A stretch of 64,000 nt of DNA, taken from assembly GCA_027452125.1 (NCBI GenBank), contig DAIDGZ010000125.1:1-64000 (forward strand). Reading direction: 5' to 3'. The notes under the pieces were generated by a model. It made no database searches, was not told the DNA's origin, and saw only the letters and a program-made list of their open reading frames with translations. The stretch is from Acidobacteriaceae bacterium (GTDB taxonomy: Bacteria > Acidobacteriota > Terriglobia > Terriglobales > Acidobacteriaceae). Shown here one piece after another: positions 3-11,075 of the stretch. Made by a program: the position numbers and the translations under genes. The number at the start of each line of letters is the position of its first letter. The first letter of the stretch is position 1.

Positions 3-1199
3 GGCGCCTGGGGCTATCAGTTCTACGCCCTGCGCCCCCTCGAGTTCACCGCGCAGATGGCCACCCGCGCCGGCGTCAACCTGTGGCAACAGGAGCCCAA
101 CCTGACCGCGCTGCTCCTCTCGCCCCTCGGCGTCATGTTCCCCGATGGCACCCTGCCCGCCTTCAACGACTCCCACTCCGTCGACCTCTATGAGGAGTCA
201 GGCCTCTACGAGGTGGCCTACGCCGCCACCCACAACCCCGACTTCGCCGCCATCTGCGACCACGCCGGGCGCGACAACCGCCAGGCCTTCCTCTTCGGCG
301 TGCCCAGTATCGACAAGGCCTCGCTGCCCCACCCCAAAAGCGCCGTCTTCCCCGATGCCGGCTATGCCACGCTGCGCGCGCCCCAGGGCGACCTGACGGA
401 GATCATGAAATTCGGCCCGCACGGCGGCGGCCACGGCCACTTCGACAAGCTCAATGAAGTCCTCTATGCCCAGGGCGGCATGATGAGCGTCGATCCCGGC
501 ACCCACTTCTACGGCATCCCCATCCACGCCAGCTGGGACAAGATGACCGTCGCCCACAACACCGTCAGCGTCGATGAGCAGCCGCAAAAACCCGCCACCG
601 GCAAGCTGCTCAACTGGCAGGCCGAGCCCGCGTTCACCGCCGTCACTGCCGACGCTGGCCCCGTCTACGACCACGTCGACCTGCAACGCACCTCGCTCGT
701 CACCTCCGGCTACGTGCTGGAGATTACGACGGCGAAGTCCACCGACGGCCAGGCCCACGACTTCGACTGGAACTACCACAACTACGGCGTCGAGCAGGTC
801 CAGGGCCAGTTCACCCCGTACGCCGGCTTCCCGCAAAACGCCGGCTACAACAACCTCATCGACAACCAGAGCGCGCAGATCGCGGGCGACATCCACGCCA
901 CCTTCACCATGGACAAGGGCCGCGCCATGCACGTGTGGATGCTGGCCGCCGGCGCGCCCAGCCTGGTCATCACCGGCCGCGCCCCGGGGCCGGACCTCCG
1001 CGTCAAGGTGCCCTACCTCCTCGTCCGCCGCCACGCCAGCCAGGCGCGCTTCGTCACCGTGCTGGAACCGGGCCCCGGCCCCGCAACGATCCAGAGCGTG
1101 ACAGAGAAGGATGGCGTCCTGCGCATCCGCTCCGCACAGTGGGAAGACACCATCACCCCCGGCGCAAAGATCGCCTACACCCGCAGGCCGCTGCGCTAG
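3..1199 (+). CDS. Heparinase II/III-like polysaccharide lyase domain protein, 5'-truncated by window edge
   Basis: Frame stays open to the window start (GAWGYQFYALRPLEFTAQM precedes the listed ORF); motifs HGHFDKLNEVLYA...DPGTHFYG...AHNTVSVDEQPQ typical of heparinase II/III-like/alginate lyase C-terminal domain. Confidence 0.75.
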   Translation, partial: GAWGYQFYALRPLEFTAQMATRAGVNLWQQEPNLTALLLSPLGVMFPDGTLPAFNDSHSVDLYEESGLYEVAYAATHNPDFAAICDHAGRDNRQAFLFGVPSIDKASLPHPKSAVFPDAGYATLRAPQGDLTEIMKFGPHGGGHGHFDKLNEVLYAQGGMMSVDPGTHFYGIPIHASWDKMTVAHNTVSVDEQPQKPATGKLLNWQAEPAFTAVTADAGPVYDHVDLQRTSLVTSGYVLEITTAKSTDGQAHDFDWNYHNYGVEQVQGQFTPYAGFPQNAGYNNLIDNQSAQIAGDIHATFTMDKGRAMHVWMLAAGAPSLVITGRAPGPDLRVKVPYLLVRRHASQARFVTVLEPGPGPATIQSVTEKDGVLRIRSAQWEDTITPGAKIAYTRRPLR

Positions 1200-2793: not shown

Positions 2794-3873
2794 TTACCTG
2801 GCTCCCAGCGCCTGCATCACCGCATCGGTCACGGCCTTCACCAGGCTGTCCACCTCGCGATCCGAGCTGCTGGAGCGGCCAATGTTGCCGTCGCAGGGCG
2901 TTGGATCGATGGCGATGGAACTCGAGCTCTCCATATCCGCAAGCTGGCACTCCTTCATGCGGTTGGGATCGAAGCGCGCATCGGGCAGGCCCAGCTTCTT
3001 CTTGATGGCCAGCAGATCGTCGGCGTGCTGCTCTGAGATGTAGGAGATGGGGGTGCCCAGCTGCGAGGCCAGCATCAGCGTCCAGCAGTAGGTCTCCAGC
3101 ACCTCGGCATACCACTCGGCGTGGGTCACCGTATCCGCCCAGCACACGATGCCGTGATTGGCCAGCAGCACCGTGTTGTGCTGCTGCACATAGGGGATCA
3201 CGGTCTGCGCAAACTCCAGGGTACCAGGGGTCTTGTAAGGCGAGATCGCCACCTTGCCCACGAAGACCTCGAACTCGGGAATGATGTTGTTCGGCGGCAC
3301 CTTGCCGGTGATGGCATAGGCCGTGGCGTGCGGCGGATGGCAGTGCACCACGGACTTGGCCTCAGGCACGGACTTGTAGATCTCCAGGTGCAGCAGAATC
3401 TCGCTGGTGCGCGGACGCACGCCGGCGATCTGGTTGCCGTCCAGGTCCACCATGCAGATGAGGTCGGGCGTCAGGTCATACTTGCTGCACAGCGTGGGCG
3501 TGCACAGCACCTCGTTGGGACCGATGCGGTAGGAGATGTTGCCGCCGTTGCCGTCGACAAACTGGCGCATCCACAGCTTCTTGCCGACCTCGCAGATCTC
3601 CTTCTTCACGGCTTCGGCTTCCGGCGAGTTGAACAGGCTGGCGTTCACACCCGGGCGGCTGGCCGCCGCGGCCGGAGCCGCCGCGGATGCCGCGACATTG
3701 CCGCCTTCCACCAGCGTGATCCGGCGCTGCTGGATGTACTCCCGGGCTGACGGAGTGATCACGCTGTTCTGCGCCACCACCAGACGGGTTGCGCCCGCTG
3801 CCGCTGCATCCTGCACATCGCGCAGCACAATCACCTTGCGGCCTGAAATATCTACGCTCTTGTCGTTGCTCAC
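2794..3873 (-). CDS. BMC-associated class II aldolase (L-fuculose/rhamnulose-phosphate aldolase type) with N-terminal extension and C-terminal encapsulation-peptide-like helix
   Basis: GNGGNISYR, VHCHPPHATAYA, ANHGIV class II aldolase zinc-site motifs; Ser-rich linker then DSLVKAVTDAVMQALGAR. Confidence 0.85.
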   Translation of the reverse strand: MSNDKSVDISGRKVIVLRDVQDAAAAGATRLVVAQNSVITPSAREYIQQRRITLVEGGNVAASAAAPAAAASRPGVNASLFNSPEAEAVKKEICEVGKKLWMRQFVDGNGGNISYRIGPNEVLCTPTLCSKYDLTPDLICMVDLDGNQIAGVRPRTSEILLHLEIYKSVPEAKSVVHCHPPHATAYAITGKVPPNNIIPEFEVFVGKVAISPYKTPGTLEFAQTVIPYVQQHNTVLLANHGIVCWADTVTHAEWYAEVLETYCWTLMLASQLGTPISYISEQHADDLLAIKKKLGLPDARFDPNRMKECQLADMESSSSIAIDPTPCDGNIGRSSSSDREVDSLVKAVTDAVMQALGAR

Positions 3874-3910: not shown

Positions 3911-4192
3911 TCACACGTCGATCGATTCGACGATCATGGCGCAATACGCGTCCACCGGGACCGAGCCCGGCCAGAAAGGGTTGGCCGCTTCCCGGCCTTC
4001 CGTAAATGCCACCAACTGTCCCTTGGCGGCGCCCAACTCATCCACGGCGATCAATGCCTTGCCTCCGCCCCGTCCGTTCTTCGCGCGAAGGTTCTCCATC
4101 GTCACCGGTTCCAGCACCACCAGCGTGCGGCCCTTGTAGGAGTCCACGGCTGGGTTCAGCACCACGTGCCCGCGCACAATGCCCAGTCTCAC
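3911..4192 (-). CDS. BMC-P (EutN/CcmL family) pentameric vertex protein
   Basis: 93 aa, MRLGIVRGHVVLNPAVDSYKGRTLVVLEPV...VAVDELGAAKGQLVAF; overlaps upstream BMC-P by 4 nt. Confidence 0.9.
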   Translation of the reverse strand: MRLGIVRGHVVLNPAVDSYKGRTLVVLEPVTMENLRAKNGRGGGKALIAVDELGAAKGQLVAFTEGREAANPFWPGSVPVDAYCAMIVESIDV

Positions 4193-4475: not shown

Positions 4476-5915
4476 CTAAATAATCCGCAGAGCGGCGCCC
4501 ACCACCATCTGGCGCTCGCGGGTGAAGGTCAGCGGCGTGGTGATGCCTTCGCCGGTGGGCGTTGCAATGCTGTGGCTGAAGTACCCCGGCCCGCCCACGC
4601 CCAACGAGGCCGGCGAGGCCGCGTTGTGAATGAACAGCGTGGTGTTCATGGCCCGCGCCATCTTGGTGGCCGTCTCCACGTTCTGCGTGTGGATGATGGC
4701 CGTGTGCCGGTAGCCATGCTCAGCCTTGACTGAGGCAGCGATGGCCGCGTCCACATTAGGCACGCGCACCACGGGCACGAAAGGCATCATCTGCTCTTCC
4801 ACCACGTAGGGATGATTCTCGTCCGTCTCGCCAAACAGCAGCGGCGTGCCTGCCGGAACCTGTACGCCCGCGGCCGCAGCCAGCACTGCTACATCCTTGC
4901 CCACGAGGTCTTTCTTCACGTGAGCGCGGGCGCAGCCGCCACCATCGCCGTCAAAGGTGAAGGCGGCCTTGGTGAGGCGATCGATAGCTGAAGGATCGAG
5001 CTGATACGCTCCGGCACGACGCATGGCAGCCATAAAGGCATCAGCCACTAAGGCCACGACGAAGATCTCTTTCTCGCCGATGCACAACAGATTATTGTCG
5101 AACGAGGCGCCATCGATGATGCAGCGCGCCGCGCGATCCAGATCGGCCGTCTCGTCCACCACCACCGGGGGATTGCCCGGGCCAGCCGCGATGACGCGCT
5201 TGCCGGACTTGCTGGCAGCCTTCACCACCATCGGCCCGCCGGTCACGCAGAGCAGCGCAATCTTGGGATGATGGAAGATCTGCTCGGCAGCCTCAATGGT
5301 CGGCGTCTGAATTGTCGTGAGCGCGTTTGCCACGCCCAGCTCCCGCTCAAACTCGCGGTTGAAGAGCTGCAGCGCATACTGCGCTACCCGTGCGCCGGAG
5401 GGATGCGGCCCAAAAACTGCCGTATTGCCCGCGGCCAGAATATTGATGGCATTGGCGGCCAGCGTGGGCACGGAGTGCGTCACCGGCAGCATCATGCCGA
5501 TCACGCCCCAGGGCGCGCGCTCGATGATGCACAGGCCGCTCTGGTCACTGCGCGCATCGCTGCGCATGGCCTCGACGCCGAGCACAAAGCGCATGTTGGT
5601 CAGCTTCAGGATCTTGTGATCCAGCCGGCCCACCTTGGTCTCTTCCATCTCCATGCGGCCCAGCTCTTCGCGCCGGTCGTTGCAGATGCGCCGCACAATA
5701 TCGATCATGCGTCCGCGCTGCTCCAGGCTCATCGCCGCAATCTTTTTCTGCGCTTCATCGGCCGCGTTCACCGCCTCGTCCACGGTGGCAAACACGCCAT
5801 CGCGCGCCGGCGTGACGGCAGGAGCGGCTGATGCCGCCTGCGGCTGCAACTGGACGCGCAGCCTGGCCACCACTTCCTTGGCAATCTCCGCGATTACCTG
5901 TTCCTGAATCTGCAT
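4476..5915 (-). CDS. CoA-acylating aldehyde dehydrogenase (PduP/EutE-like), N-terminal encapsulation peptide
   Basis: Start refined to CAT at 5913-5915 (MQIQEQVIAEIAKEVVARLRVQL); catalytic motif SFDNNLLCIGEKEIF; located between BMC-P genes. Confidence 0.9.
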   Translation of the reverse strand: MQIQEQVIAEIAKEVVARLRVQLQPQAASAAPAVTPARDGVFATVDEAVNAADEAQKKIAAMSLEQRGRMIDIVRRICNDRREELGRMEMEETKVGRLDHKILKLTNMRFVLGVEAMRSDARSDQSGLCIIERAPWGVIGMMLPVTHSVPTLAANAINILAAGNTAVFGPHPSGARVAQYALQLFNREFERELGVANALTTIQTPTIEAAEQIFHHPKIALLCVTGGPMVVKAASKSGKRVIAAGPGNPPVVVDETADLDRAARCIIDGASFDNNLLCIGEKEIFVVALVADAFMAAMRRAGAYQLDPSAIDRLTKAAFTFDGDGGGCARAHVKKDLVGKDVAVLAAAAGVQVPAGTPLLFGETDENHPYVVEEQMMPFVPVVRVPNVDAAIAASVKAEHGYRHTAIIHTQNVETATKMARAMNTTLFIHNAASPASLGVGGPGYFSHSIATPTGEGITTPLTFTRERQMVVGAALRII

Positions 5916-6211
5916 TATGGCTTCTCCAAGACCGCGCCCTCCACCTCGACGGCATCGATGATGCCGACGATCACGGCGTCTACGGGCGCATCCTTCGTAG
6001 CAGGCGTCAACCGCGCCGAGCTGCCCTGGGTAAACAGGACACACTCGCCCACGCCCGCGCCTACGCTATCCACCGCCACCACCGAACTTCCCGAGATCTG
6101 CAGCCTGCCCTCTTTGGTGATGTAGGGCTGTATCAGCAGCAGCTTCATCCCGCGAAACCTGGCGTTCTTCTGGGTGGAGACTACGTTGCCAATCACCTTT
6201 GCAATAAACAT
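5915..6211 (-). CDS. BMC-P (EutN/CcmL family) pentameric vertex protein
   Basis: 98 aa, MFIAKVIGNVVSTQKNARFRGMKLLLIQP...VVAVDSVGAGVGECVLFTQGSSAR. Confidence 0.92.
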   Translation of the reverse strand: MFIAKVIGNVVSTQKNARFRGMKLLLIQPYITKEGRLQISGSSVVAVDSVGAGVGECVLFTQGSSARLTPATKDAPVDAVIVGIIDAVEVEGAVLEKP

Positions 6212-6259: not shown

Positions 6260-6532
6260 CTACTTCGGCAGTACGGCCGTAACGTTGTCATGGGGCCGAG
6301 CGATCACGTGCACGCTCTGCACCTCGCCAGCCGCACGCGCCGCGGCGGCGCCTGCATCCACAGCAGCGCGTACGCTGCCCACATCACCCGAAACGTACAC
6401 CGAGCACAGGCCGCTGCCCACCTTGGTCCAGCCCAGAAACTTGACGCTGGCCGCCTTGAGCATCGCGTCCGTCGCCTGCACCAGAGCCACGAGGCCCTTG
6501 GTTTCGATCATTCCAACCGCTTCATTCGCCAT
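6260..6532 (-). CDS. BMC-H hexameric shell protein
   Basis: 90 aa, [58 protein letters not shown]...VIARPHD. Confidence 0.95.
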
Positions 6533-6553: not shown

Positions 6554-6823
6554 TTACTTCAACATGCTTTCCACGAGGGCATCGTGAGGCCGGGGAATCA
6601 CGTGCGACGAGACCAGCTCGCCCACCACCTTGGCCGCAGCCGAACCCGCATCCACAGCGGCGCGCACGCTGCCCACATCACCGCGCACGATAGCGGTAAT
6701 AAAGCCGCCGCCGATCTGAACGGTCTTCACCAGCTCCACGCTGGCCGCCTTCACCATGGCATCGCTGGCCTCAACCAGGCCCACCATGCCGCGGGTCTCA
6801 ATCAATCCGATTGCCTGACTCAT
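6554..6823 (-). CDS. BMC-H hexameric shell protein
   Basis: 89 aa, [58 protein letters not shown]...VIPRPHD. Confidence 0.96.
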   Translation of the reverse strand: MSQAIGLIETRGMVGLVEASDAMVKAASVELVKTVQIGGGFITAIVRGDVGSVRAAVDAGSAAAKVVGELVSSHVIPRPHDALVESMLK

Positions 6824-7161: not shown

Positions 7162-7842
7162 TTACTTGAACAGTTCAACGTCTTTGGTCAAATGCAGGCC
7201 ACACGCGTTGGCCTCGTCGGTGTCCATGTGCACATTCAGCTTCGATGTCGGATCAATGCGCACGTGAACGTTGTTGAAGGTGACGCCGGCGGGGCCGCCG
7301 ACGCGGAGTTTCATCATGTCGCCCTTGGTGACGCCGAAGTAGGCCGCCTCCTGGGGATTCATGTGGACGTGAATGGCCGCGCGGATGACGCCTTTCTTCA
7401 GCTCCACCACGCCCTTGGGACCAACAATGACCGCACCCGGCGTTCCCTCAATGTCGCCCGAGAGGCGCACCGGGATATCTTTGAAGCCCAGCGTGATCGC
7501 ATCGGTAAAGGCCAGCTCCACCTGCGACTCCTTGCGCATGGGACCAAGAATGCGGAGGTTGGAGATGATGCGGCTGCGCGGACCGACGATCGTCACCGTC
7601 TCCCTGGCCGCGTAGTTGCCCTCCTGAAAGAGGGGGCGATCCACGGTCAGCTCGGAGCCGGGGCCGAACAGAATATCCATGTCCTCGCGGCAGACGTGCA
7701 TGTGCCGGGAAGATGACTGCACCACGAGCTGCGGCACGGAGCCGTTCTTTCCCTTGCCCAGATACTCCAGGGCTACCTGCCGGACAATGCGTTCGACCGC
7801 CGCGCGATCGACATTTCCTAATGTTGCGCTCGCCATAAGCAA
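7162..7842 (-). CDS. pduL: PduL-type phosphate propanoyltransferase/phosphotransacylase with N-terminal encapsulation-peptide-like helix
   Basis: VVQSSSRHMHVCREDMDILFG...RLSGDIEGTPGAVIVGPKGVVELKKGVIRAAIHVHMNPQEAAYFGVTKGD; N-term DRAAVERIVRQVALEYL. Confidence 0.92.
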   Translation of the reverse strand: MLMASATLGNVDRAAVERIVRQVALEYLGKGKNGSVPQLVVQSSSRHMHVCREDMDILFGPGSELTVDRPLFQEGNYAARETVTIVGPRSRIISNLRILGPMRKESQVELAFTDAITLGFKDIPVRLSGDIEGTPGAVIVGPKGVVELKKGVIRAAIHVHMNPQEAAYFGVTKGDMMKLRVGGPAGVTFNNVHVRIDPTSKLNVHMDTDEANACGLHLTKDVELFK

Positions 7843-7852
7843 TCCTGTGCTG

Positions 7853-9019
7853 CTACAAGTTCACCTGCTGCGCGGCCGACTTCGCCTGCGCCACCACGGC
7901 CACGGTCTCGCGGGCCACGACCAGTTCTTCATTGGCAGGGACGATGTAGACCTTGACCGCGGAGTTCGCGGTCGAGATCAGCCCCTCGCCCTTCACCGTG
8001 CGATTCTTCTCCGCATCCATTTCAATACCGAAGGCGGAGAGATTGCTGAGAACAGCGGCACGAATCTCGGCGCTATTCTCGCCGATGCCGCCGGAAAAGG
8101 TAATCACATCCACGCCGCCCAGTTCCACCAGGAACGCTCCCAGGTAGTGCCGGATCGAGCGGACAAATACATCCAGCGCCAACTTCGAGCGCGCATCGCC
8201 TGCCGCTGCCGCCTCCGTCAGGTCGCGCACATCGCCGCTCTTGCCGCTCACGCCGGCCAGGCCTGCTTGGCTGCCCAGCAGGGCCGTCATCTCGTCCGGG
8301 CCCAGCCCCAGCTTCTTCATCATGTGCAGCACGGCAAATACGTCAACGTCGCCCACACGATTGTTCTGCGGCAGGCCTGACTGCGGCGAGGCGCCCATGC
8401 TCGTGTCCTCGCCCACTCCATTCCGGAAGGCGCCCACGCTGGAACTGCCACCCAGATGGCAGGAGATGTGCCGCACCTCCGCCCGGCCCAGCAGAATCCG
8501 CGCCCGCTCGCTGGCTGCCCGATGGCTGGCCCCGTGGAAGCCGTAGCGGCGAATGCCATGCTCGGTGCGCCACTCATACGGAACCGCATACGTGGTCGCG
8601 GCCTCGTCCATAAAACGCCAGGTAAATGGCTCCATCACCGCCACCAGCGGCACACCCGGCAACTCCTCGGCAAAAGCCTTCATGGCCGCGATATAGGGAG
8701 GATTGTGCGCAGGGGCAAGGAAGCAGAACTGTTCCATCGCGGCCAGAAAGTTCTCATCGATGATCTGCGGCGCGTTCAACGGCCCGGCATGCACCGCCTT
8801 GAAGCCAACCGCGCCAATCTCCTGCAAACTCGCCAGCGGCTTGCCTTCGCCCGTAATCTCACCGATGCACTTATGAATGGCCGAAGGGTAGTCCGCGCAT
8901 TCGCCTCCCGGCTGCCCAATGCGCTCTACCCGGCCCTCGGCCAGAACCGTCTCGGCCGGCATATCCAGGACTCGGTATTTGAAAGAGGTAGTACCGATGT
9001 TTGGTATCAGAACTTTCAT
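7853..9019 (-). CDS. Acetate/propionate kinase family protein (divergent)
   Basis: NIGTTSFKYRVLDM, HGIRRYGFHGASH, CHLGGSSSVGAFRNGVGEDTSMG, TFSGGIGENSAEIR, NEELVVARE. Confidence 0.88.
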   Translation of the reverse strand: MKVLIPNIGTTSFKYRVLDMPAETVLAEGRVERIGQPGGECADYPSAIHKCIGEITGEGKPLASLQEIGAVGFKAVHAGPLNAPQIIDENFLAAMEQFCFLAPAHNPPYIAAMKAFAEELPGVPLVAVMEPFTWRFMDEAATTYAVPYEWRTEHGIRRYGFHGASHRAASERARILLGRAEVRHISCHLGGSSSVGAFRNGVGEDTSMGASPQSGLPQNNRVGDVDVFAVLHMMKKLGLGPDEMTALLGSQAGLAGVSGKSGDVRDLTEAAAAGDARSKLALDVFVRSIRHYLGAFLVELGGVDVITFSGGIGENSAEIRAAVLSNLSAFGIEMDAEKNRTVKGEGLISTANSAVKVYIVPANEELVVARETVAVVAQAKSAAQQVNL

Positions 9020-9033
9020 GTTTTTGACCGATC

Positions 9034-9062
9034 TTGATTGAAGTTGAATGATACGATACAGT
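9034..9062 (+). promoter_or_regulatory. Candidate sigma70-type promoter for the pduS-like/BMC-T pair (TTGATT-17-TACAGT)
   Basis: -35 TTGATT 9034-9039, 17 nt spacer, -10 TACAGT 9057-9062; start codon at 9115. Confidence 0.4.
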
Positions 9063-9077
9063 GTTTGGCAGAGTCAA
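9048..9077 (-). promoter_or_regulatory. Candidate sigma70-type promoter for the ackA-like to deoR BMC operon (TTGACT-18-TATCAT)
   Basis: Minus-strand -35 TTGACT (plus AGTCAA 9072-9077), 18 nt spacer, -10 TATCAT (plus ATGATA 9048-9053). Confidence 0.4.
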
Positions 9078-9114
9078 TTGTAATTTCTTGAGAGATTCTG
9101 AGAGGCAAATTCAG

Positions 9115-10464
9115 ATGGCAGCAAAGGCGAGCACATCGCAGATACATCCGGTGAGCGGCGGCGCTTCCGCCACCACTCCCGAGCGCGTGGAAGAACTTGG
9201 AATCGTAGGCGCCGGCGGCGGCGGCTTCCCCACTGCGGTCAAGCTCCGCACCCAGGTTTCCACGGTCATCGCCAACGCCGCTGAGTGCGAACCCCTGCTA
9301 CACAAGGACAAGGAGCTGTTGCATCACTTTGCCGAGCCCTTTCTGCGCGGCATGCAGCAGGTGATGCACCTGGTGGGCGCCCGCGAGGGCGTGGTGGGCA
9401 TCAAGGAGAAGTACCACGACATCATTGAGACTCTGGAGCAGATGGCCCCTGCAGGCATCCGCATAGCTCCGCTGCCCGACGTCTACCCCGCGGGCGATGA
9501 GTTCATCCTGGTGCACATGGTCACCGGGCGGGTGATCCCGCCGGGAGGCCTGCCCAAAGACGTAGACGTGATGGTGGCCAACGTGGAGACGCTGATGAAT
9601 ATCGGCCTGGACCGCCCCGTCACCCACAAGTACCTGACCGTGGCTGGAGCCGTGGCCAACCCGATGACCGTGCGTGTGCCCATCGGCGTCACCATCGGCG
9701 AGGTGATCGAAGCCGCCGGCGGAGCCACCGCGGAGCACATCGGCGTACTGCTGGGCGGCGTGATGATGGCCAAGCCCGCGCCAAACCTGAACGTACCCGT
9801 CACCAAGACGACCGGCGGCATCATCGTGCTGCCCGCCGAGCATACCCTCATCAAGCGGCACAACGCCCCATGGATTCAGGTGGAGAAGATTGGCCGCTCG
9901 GCATGCGACCAGTGCCGCTTCTGCACCGAGTTCTGCCCGCGCTTCCTGCTGGGCCACCCGATCGAGCCGCATCGCGCCATGCAGTCGCTGGGCTTCCAGG
10001 TGGCGGCGGATGTGGCAGTGGCCACGCTCTACTGCTGCGAGTGCAACCTGTGCAGCATGTACGCCTGCCCTGAGGATCTGGACCCCAAGAATGTGTGCGT
10101 GCAGAACAAGCCGCTGGCCCGCGAACGCGGACTCACCTTCAAGGGCTCTCCGGCCTCTATTGAGCCACACCCCATGGCGGAGTTCCGCCGCGTGCCCATG
10201 CGCCGGCTCATCGCCAAGCTGGGTCTGGGCGAGTTCAACAACACCGGCCCGCTCACCGAGCTGCCGCTGCACCCGCGCAAGGTGACCATCCCCCTCAAGC
10301 AGCACGCCGGCGCGCCCTCCGCAGCCGTGGTGAAGAGCGGCGACCGTGTGCGCGTAGGCGACTTGCTGGCCGCACCAGAAGCGGGCAAACTCGGCGCGCG
10401 CATCCATGCCAGCATCGACGGCGTGGTGACCGTAGGCCAGGATTCCGTCGTCATTGAGGCGTAG
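9115..10464 (+). CDS. PduS/RnfC-like NADH-oxidising Fe-S flavoprotein
   Basis: GAGGGGFPTAVKLR nucleotide-binding loop; two ferredoxin-type Cys clusters CDQCRFCTEFCPR and CCECNLCSMYACPE; about 449 aa, similar to PduS. Confidence 0.88.
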   Translation: MAAKASTSQIHPVSGGASATTPERVEELGIVGAGGGGFPTAVKLRTQVSTVIANAAECEPLLHKDKELLHHFAEPFLRGMQQVMHLVGAREGVVGIKEKYHDIIETLEQMAPAGIRIAPLPDVYPAGDEFILVHMVTGRVIPPGGLPKDVDVMVANVETLMNIGLDRPVTHKYLTVAGAVANPMTVRVPIGVTIGEVIEAAGGATAEHIGVLLGGVMMAKPAPNLNVPVTKTTGGIIVLPAEHTLIKRHNAPWIQVEKIGRSACDQCRFCTEFCPRFLLGHPIEPHRAMQSLGFQVAADVAVATLYCCECNLCSMYACPEDLDPKNVCVQNKPLARERGLTFKGSPASIEPHPMAEFRRVPMRRLIAKLGLGEFNNTGPLTELPLHPRKVTIPLKQHAGAPSAAVVKSGDRVRVGDLLAAPEAGKLGARIHASIDGVVTVGQDSVVIEA

Positions 10465-10514: not shown

Positions 10515-11075
10515 GTGGCAGAGATTAAATCGATTGGACTGATTGAGCTTTCCAGCGTAGCAGCAGGCTACCTGGTGCAGGACATTATGCTGAAGGCCGG
10601 CTCTGTGCATCTGATGCTGGCGCGCACCATCTGCTCAGGCAAGTACCTCATCGTCGTATCCGGCGACGTGACCAGTGTGCAGGCGGCATTGCTGGCCGGC
10701 GCACAGCAGGCCGGCGCCTCGCTCATCGAGCGGCGGCAGATTGCCCGCGTTCACCCCACAGTACTGGAGGCCATTGCGCAGGCAGTCGAAGTCGATCCTG
10801 CCCAGCTGCGCTCCATCGGCGTGGTGGAGACCTTCTCCGCAGCCAGCATTATTGAGGCCGCCGATGCTGCGATCAAGACCGCCAACGTAACCCTGCTGCG
10901 CGTCCACCTGGCCATGGCGCTGGGCGGCAAGGGCTTCGTGGTGATGGCCGGCGATGTCTCCAGTGTGCAGGCTGCCGTGGCCGCCGCGGCCAAGGCCGCG
11001 GGCGATGATGGAATGCTTGTGGGCAAGGCCGTCATCCCGGCGCCCTCACCCGAGCTGTTCAAGGACTACCTGTAA
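10515..11075 (+). CDS. BMC-T (tandem BMC domain) trimeric shell protein, PduT-like
   Basis: Two BMC domains (IKSIGLIELSSVAAGYLVQDIMLKAGSV... and LRSIGVVETFSAASIIEAADAAIKTANV...); RTICSGKYL resembles PduT KTICPGKFL; GTG start. Confidence 0.93.
   Translation: MAEIKSIGLIELSSVAAGYLVQDIMLKAGSVHLMLARTICSGKYLIVVSGDVTSVQAALLAGAQQAGASLIERRQIARVHPTVLEAIAQAVEVDPAQLRSIGVVETFSAASIIEAADAAIKTANVTLLRVHLAMALGGKGFVVMAGDVSSVQAAVAAAAKAAGDDGMLVGKAVIPAPSPELFKDYL

What the first reader, a model, noticed from the sequence alone, without database searches (positions are those of the whole stretch)
10515..11075. BMC-T retains the cysteine of the PduT 4Fe-4S pore motif
The first BMC domain contains LARTICSGKYLIVVSGD (Cys40). 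From memory, Salmonella PduT has KTICPGKFLLMLGGD, where that cysteine (Cys38) ligates a 4Fe-4S cluster at the trimer threefold axis. The second domain has GGKGFVV in the equivalent place. A trimer would therefore present three cysteines at the pore, consistent with a redox-active shell protein.
Basis: partly seen in the sequence, partly recalled or inferred. Interest (0 to 1): 0.6.

Follow-up and report, generated by a model that had tools for sequence, protein, structure and literature searches.

The report
PduT-like iron-sulfur microcompartment shell protein
The gene encodes a bacterial-organelle shell protein whose only cysteine sits exactly where a known relative (PduT) holds an iron-sulfur cluster in its pore, next to a gene for a matching electron-transfer enzyme; this is a good example of a known kind, in a sugar-degrading compartment where that pair has been little described.

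Summary
Window 10515-11075 (+) encodes a 186-aa tandem BMC-domain (BMC-T) protein with a single cysteine, Cys40, that aligns without gaps to Cys38 of PduT (PDB 3PAC). The equivalent residue in domain 2 is Leu136, so a trimer would present three cysteines. An AlphaFold2 model (pLDDT 92.8) matches 3PAC at TM 0.92, rmsd 1.3 A. Cys40 is invariant in all 90 BMC-T loci from the first two searches.

The gene lies directly downstream of a PduS-like NADH/FMN/2x[4Fe-4S] oxidoreductase, divergent from a class II aldolase (PVM-like) microcompartment operon. In a sample of Acidobacteriota, a pore cysteine always comes with an adjacent PduS where the flank can be read. Cys-less BMC-Ts have none adjacent, and none in the 24 genomes checked. 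On the tree this is only about two changes, so the support is suggestive.

The locus has no alcohol or lactate dehydrogenase. In Planctomycetota, the LDH of PVM loci was seen only in PduS-negative genomes (5/9 against 0/16). I infer that PduS/PduT exports electrons from lumenal NADH. The cluster and the electron transfer are not shown. This is a new member of a known kind.

The parts
10515..11075 (+). PduT-like tandem BMC-domain shell protein (BMC-T), 186 aa, one cysteine
10632..10634 (+). codon of Cys40 (TGC), predicted pore ligand of a [4Fe-4S] cluster, equivalent to PduT Cys38
10920..10940 (+). domain-2 pore loop, codons 136-142 (LGGKGFV); Leu136 replaces the cysteine
   Evidence: direct reading
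9115..10464 (+). PduS-like oxidoreductase (Complex1_51K, SLBB, Fer4_17, C-terminal RnfC_N); two CxxC-type 4Fe-4S motifs, all eight ligand cysteines invariant in 64 sequences; the ORF can also start at 9061
9020..9114 (.). divergent intergenic region between AckA and PduS; block TTGATTGAAGTTGAATGATACGATACA shared with three relatives, possible operator
7853..9019 (-). acetate/propionate kinase (AckA-like)
7162..7842 (-). PduL phosphotransacylase with N-terminal encapsulation-peptide-like helix
6844..7137 (-). BMC-H shell protein
6554..6823 (-). BMC-H shell protein
6260..6532 (-). BMC-H shell protein
5915..6211 (-). BMC-P (EutN/CcmL) vertex protein
4476..5918 (-). CoA-acylating aldehyde dehydrogenase with N-terminal encapsulation-peptide-like helix
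4189..4473 (-). BMC-P vertex protein
3911..4192 (-). BMC-P vertex protein
2794..3873 (-). class II (fuculose/rhamnulose-phosphate type) aldolase with extra N-terminal domain and C-terminal encapsulation-peptide-like helix
1974..2732 (-). DeoR-family regulator

Best explanation
The gene encodes a PduT-like shell trimer. Three copies of Cys40 line its central pore and bind a [4Fe-4S] cluster. The cluster receives electrons from the PduS-like flavo-iron-sulfur protein encoded just upstream, which would sit on the inner face and oxidise lumenal NADH. The NADH comes from the acylating aldehyde dehydrogenase as it converts lactaldehyde, made by the class II aldolase from a 6-deoxysugar phosphate, to lactoyl-CoA. 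The pair would thus be a trans-shell electron outlet that regenerates NAD+ in a compartment whose operon has no alcohol or lactate dehydrogenase. Shown here: the cysteine, its invariance, the PduT fold, the PduS neighbour and its conserved ligands, the gene content, and the co-distribution with PduS. Inferred: trimer, cluster, PduS-PduT contact, direction of electron flow, substrate and cytosolic acceptor.
For: Cys40 aligns to the PduT ligand. The model matches 3PAC (TM 0.92, rmsd 1.3 A) and also 5DII, an engineered BMC-T that binds [4Fe-4S]. Cys40 is invariant in the first-search relatives. PduS lies immediately upstream, with all eight Fe-S ligands conserved 64/64. In the tree set 69 of 74 Cys BMC-Ts have PduS adjacent and 0 of 23 non-Cys ones do. 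Of 19 genomes whose locus showed no adjacent PduS, 17 carry PduS elsewhere, and 24 genomes with non-Cys BMC-T have no full-length PduS. The locus holds no NAD+-recycling dehydrogenase, and in Planctomycetota an LDH follows the aldolase in 5 of 9 PduS-negative PVM loci and 0 of 16 PduS-positive ones (Fisher p 0.002). Published: PduT's cluster is at +99 mV and PduS binds PduT (PMC2982820); the same outlet was proposed for GRM compartments (PMC6325248; PMC4207490).
Against: No spectroscopic or functional evidence exists for this protein. The cysteine-PduS match rests on about two changes on the tree, so it is not a statistically independent test, and the LDH contrast is likewise not corrected for kinship. 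PduS is best known as a corrin reductase; no B12 dehydratase was found in the own genome, but that genome is 67% complete and the control search for that family rang nowhere. The genome's Fe-ADH, away from the locus, could be an unlinked recycling enzyme.
Confidence: 0.7

Rival explanations
1. The trimer binds the cluster and PduS, but the pair serves a cobalamin or other cofactor-reductase role (as proposed for Pdu) rather than NAD+ regeneration for the aldolase pathway.
For: Citrobacter PduS binds and reduces cobalamin (PMC2982820).
Against: No B12-dependent enzyme is encoded in the locus, and none of the mapped close relatives shows an additional gene of that kind within it. Published GRM and aldolase loci carry PduS without B12 enzymes. 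The diol dehydratase search in the own genome was negative but weak.
Confidence: 0.12
2. The cysteine is an inherited relic or structural residue: the pore is an ordinary metabolite channel and no cluster is formed in vivo.
For: The Cys and non-Cys groups are nearly single clades, so inheritance alone could keep the residue. No cluster has been measured.
Against: Invariance at 40-50% overall identity points to strong constraint. The one nested clade without Cys (L190-L193) also lacks PduS adjacent and genome-wide. The cysteine persists when PduS is encoded elsewhere in the genome.
Confidence: 0.12
3. The three cysteines bind something else (a mononuclear metal, a [2Fe-2S] or [3Fe-4S] cluster, or form a redox thiol switch that gates the pore).
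For: Only three protein ligands are present; the fourth ligand is unknown even in PduT (PMC6325248).
Against: PduT with the same three-cysteine site is reported as 4Fe-4S binding (3PAC title), and an engineered BMC-T of the same fold binds [4Fe-4S] (5DII).
Confidence: 0.06

Closest known systems
PduT (Citrobacter freundii / Salmonella propanediol compartment; PDB 3PAC, 3N79)
   Same: Same tandem-BMC fold over the whole length (43% identity, TM 0.92), cysteine at the same pore position, gene next to pduS.
   Different: Different compartment (class II aldolase, no B12 diol dehydratase); scores 122 bits against the 250-bit cut-off of the curated PduT/eut equivalog; lacks the extra cysteines that PduT has in domain 2.
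PduS/PduT pairs of GRM (glycyl-radical) microcompartments
   Same: PduS and Cys-bearing PduT encoded together without a B12 enzyme; the C-[PSA]-G-K-Y motif of the published description fits.
   Different: The signature enzyme here is an aldolase and there is no glycyl radical enzyme or flavodoxin target in the locus.
PVM and PVM-like (fucose/rhamnose aldolase) microcompartments
   Same: DeoR regulator, class II aldolase, acylating AldDH, PduL, AckA, BMC-H and BMC-P genes.
   Different: No lactate/malate dehydrogenase; PduS and a Cys-bearing BMC-T present; found in Acidobacteriota.
Engineered [4Fe-4S] BMC-T from Haliangium ochraceum (PDB 5DII)
   Same: Tandem BMC fold binding a [4Fe-4S] cluster.
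   Different: The cluster site is engineered, and similarity to our protein is only about 31%, TM about 0.68.

Membership tests
PduT-type Fe-S BMC-T | tandem BMC domains with PduT fold | tested here: met
PduT-type Fe-S BMC-T | pore cysteine at PduT Cys38 | tested here: met
PduT-type Fe-S BMC-T | gene adjacent to pduS | tested here: met
PduT-type Fe-S BMC-T | cysteines of three subunits on the threefold axis | tested here: inconclusive
   inferred from ungapped alignment to 3PAC and monomer model; trimer not modelled
PduT-type Fe-S BMC-T | [4Fe-4S] cluster bound | not testable with these tools
   needs protein
NCBIfam TIGR02526 (eut_PduT equivalog) | score over the curated cut-off of 250.3 bits | tested here: not met
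   122.3 bits; so called PduT-like, not PduT
PduS | Complex1_51K, SLBB, Fer4_17 and RnfC_N domains, the last C-terminal | tested here: met
PduS | two four-cysteine 4Fe-4S motifs | tested here: met
   64/64 for each of eight cysteines
PduS | NADH/cobalamin reductase activity | not testable with these tools
   needs enzyme assay
PVM microcompartment | class II aldolase, DeoR, AckA, PduL, AldDH, BMC-P and BMC-H genes together | tested here: met
PVM microcompartment | lactate/malate dehydrogenase gene in the locus | tested here: not met
   (no LDH hit among the window ORFs)
[quoted passage not shown]
   three of each
PVM-like microcompartment (Axen 2014) | class II aldolase, DeoR usual, core alcohol dehydrogenase usually absent | tested here: met

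The most novel reading that the evidence does not exclude
In aldolase (rhamnose/fucose) microcompartments, the PduS/PduT pair takes the place of the encapsulated lactate dehydrogenase: NAD+ is regenerated by passing electrons out through an iron-sulfur pore instead of by reducing a metabolite. Acidobacteriota loci like this one and Pirellulales genomes use the pore, while other Planctomycetes use LDH.
Probability: 0.35. Interest if true: 0.6.

Novelty: new member of a known kind. Interest (0 to 1): 0.35.

Why it matters
Whether microcompartment shells carry electrons through iron-sulfur pores is a long-standing open question. This locus type isolates the question from B12 and glycyl-radical chemistry: PduS is the only gene in the operon besides the aldehyde dehydrogenase that looks able to handle NADH, so a pduS/pduT deletion or C40S mutant gives a clean prediction. 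The contrast with LDH-bearing PVM loci gives a natural comparison.

Tried and rejected
Statistical proof of the cysteine-PduS link: the counts are perfect in the phylum sample where the flank can be read, but the tree needs only two changes of the cysteine, so at most two independent pairs exist and a sign test has no power. Bias check: the first search used a peptide pattern containing the cysteine (ICSGKYLI), so I repeated it with whole-genome protein and profile searches that do not require it. Loss of PduS: 19 first-search loci showed no adjacent PduS (some are short contigs), but 17 of those genomes hold a full or near-full PduS elsewhere and two show only fragments. Substrate: rhamnulokinase and L-rhamnose isomerase were not found in the own genome, which is 67% complete and so says little. 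B12 diol dehydratase was not found, but the control was silent. A DeoR operator was seen only as a conserved block and not tested.

Full report
Observation. The ORF at 10515-11075 (+) has a GTG start with GAAGGAG eight bases upstream. It encodes two BMC domains. Its only cysteine is residue 40, in LARTICSGKYLIVVSGD. phmmer aligns it, with no gap nearby, to TICPGKF of PduT in 3PAC and TISPGKF in the C38S mutant 3N79. Reading back from the conserved GD of each domain, Leu136 of LGGKGFVV is the domain-2 counterpart.

Fold. An AlphaFold2 model on a 40-sequence alignment has mean pLDDT 92.8. Its DSSP places Cys40 at the end of strand 32-40, before strand 43-50, the turn that lines the pore in PduT. 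Foldseek's closest PDB matches are PduT-type proteins; 3PAC, titled a trimeric protein with a 4Fe-4S binding site, matches with TM 0.92 and rmsd 1.3 A, and 5DII, an engineered BMC-T that binds [4Fe-4S], is also among the matches. The trimer itself could not be modelled, so the axial position is inferred by homology.

Conservation. 80 relatives from named genomes and full-length relatives in the same class were aligned: all carry the cysteine. The best matches are MAGs named Acidobacteriaceae and Terracidiphilus, so the host is an acidobacterium of that kind. Only 5 of 35 other genomes of the same genus have a full-length copy, so the locus is patchy.

Partner. The gene directly upstream (9115-10464) has the four-domain order of PduS, with RnfC_N at the C-terminus rather than the N-terminus as in RnfC. 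Eight cysteines in two four-cysteine motifs are invariant in 64 sequences, and a glycine-rich GxGGGGFP nucleotide-site motif is conserved. PduS from Citrobacter binds PduT and carries flavin and two [4Fe-4S] clusters (PMC2982820).

Test of the link. A profile search of 396 Acidobacteriota genomes gave BMC-Ts with and without the cysteine. After fetching flanks, Cys BMC-Ts had PduS adjacent in every case except one at a contig end; no non-Cys BMC-T did. In the combined tree set the counts are 69 Cys with adjacent PduS, 4 Cys without, 0 non-Cys with and 23 non-Cys without. The four exceptions are Planctomycetes; a search of the 19 first-search genomes with no adjacent PduS found PduS elsewhere in 17. 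24 genomes with non-Cys BMC-T have no full-length PduS; the best is an RnfC-like 104-bit match in two. Non-Cys loci are mostly DeoC/RpiB (sugar-phosphate) compartments, while one DeoC-bearing locus, L194, has both the cysteine and PduS. The clade L190-L193, which the tree places inside the Cys group with moderate support, lacks both. The tree needs only two changes, so this is concordance and not a powered test.

Pathway. The divergent operon encodes a DeoR regulator, class II aldolase, three BMC-P, three BMC-H, acylating AldDH, PduL and AckA. Encapsulation-peptide-like helices are seen at the N-termini of AldDH and PduL and the C-terminus of the aldolase, and recur in relatives. Rhamnulokinase-like genes adjoin the locus in five relatives, four of them checked against the rhamnulokinase model, and a LUD-domain lactate-utilisation-type gene adjoins in some, which fits a deoxysugar-to-lactaldehyde-to-lactate route. 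This is inference for the window, since no rhamnose gene was found in its incomplete genome. The genes are packed tightly and include no alcohol, lactate or hydroxyacid dehydrogenase.

Replacement idea. Published PVM loci use a lactate/malate dehydrogenase gene as the predicted NAD+ recycler (PMC4207490). In 199 Planctomycetota genomes, PduS is rare (5 genomes) and the PVM-type aldolase is found in 17. Combining those loci with the PduS-positive genomes reached earlier, an L-LDH-type gene directly follows the aldolase in 5 of 9 PduS-negative loci with a readable operon and in 0 of 16 PduS-positive ones. Fisher p is 0.002, not corrected for kinship. It suggests that PduS/PduT and LDH are alternatives.

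Known or new. The conserved PduT cysteine and PduS pairing were already described for GRM loci, with electron export as the proposed role (PMC4207490; PMC6325248). The window protein misses the curated PduT cut-off (122 against 250 bits), so it is PduT-like. The papers read do not describe the pair in Acidobacteriota aldolase loci, but supplements were not available, so this is not a claim of priority.

Noticed in passing
L022-L081 (Planctomycetes loci) and L207-L224: In many Pirellulales/Thermoguttaceae genomes the PduS-PduT pair is a stand-alone satellite, unlinked from the aldolase microcompartment operon; in gut and termite members even PduS and PduT are apart.
   Followed up: partly
L243, L246, L247, L249, L250: An L-lactate-dehydrogenase-type gene directly follows the aldolase in PVM loci of PduS-negative Planctomycetota and in none of the PduS-positive ones examined.
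   Followed up: partly
window 2794-3873 (-), first about 75 codons; c0 proteins in L207-L250: The acidobacterial aldolase has an N-terminal domain (VITPSAREYI...) that weakly resembles a separate gene between the BMC-P genes of Planctomycetes; possible fusion. The separate protein (L213) has no Pfam match.
   Followed up: partly
L188, L189, L178, L180: BMC-Ts of DeoC/RpiB loci with a cysteine one residue later in the pore loop (VGCGK, IHCGR) and no PduS; possibly another redox or metal site.
   Followed up: no
window 9033-9081: Conserved block in the divergent AckA-PduS intergenic region (GAATGATACGATACA), a candidate operator for the locus DeoR regulator.
   Followed up: partly
window 57-1199 (+): Heparinase II/III-like C-terminal domain gene next to the DeoR gene, suggesting polysaccharide breakdown near the locus.
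   Followed up: no
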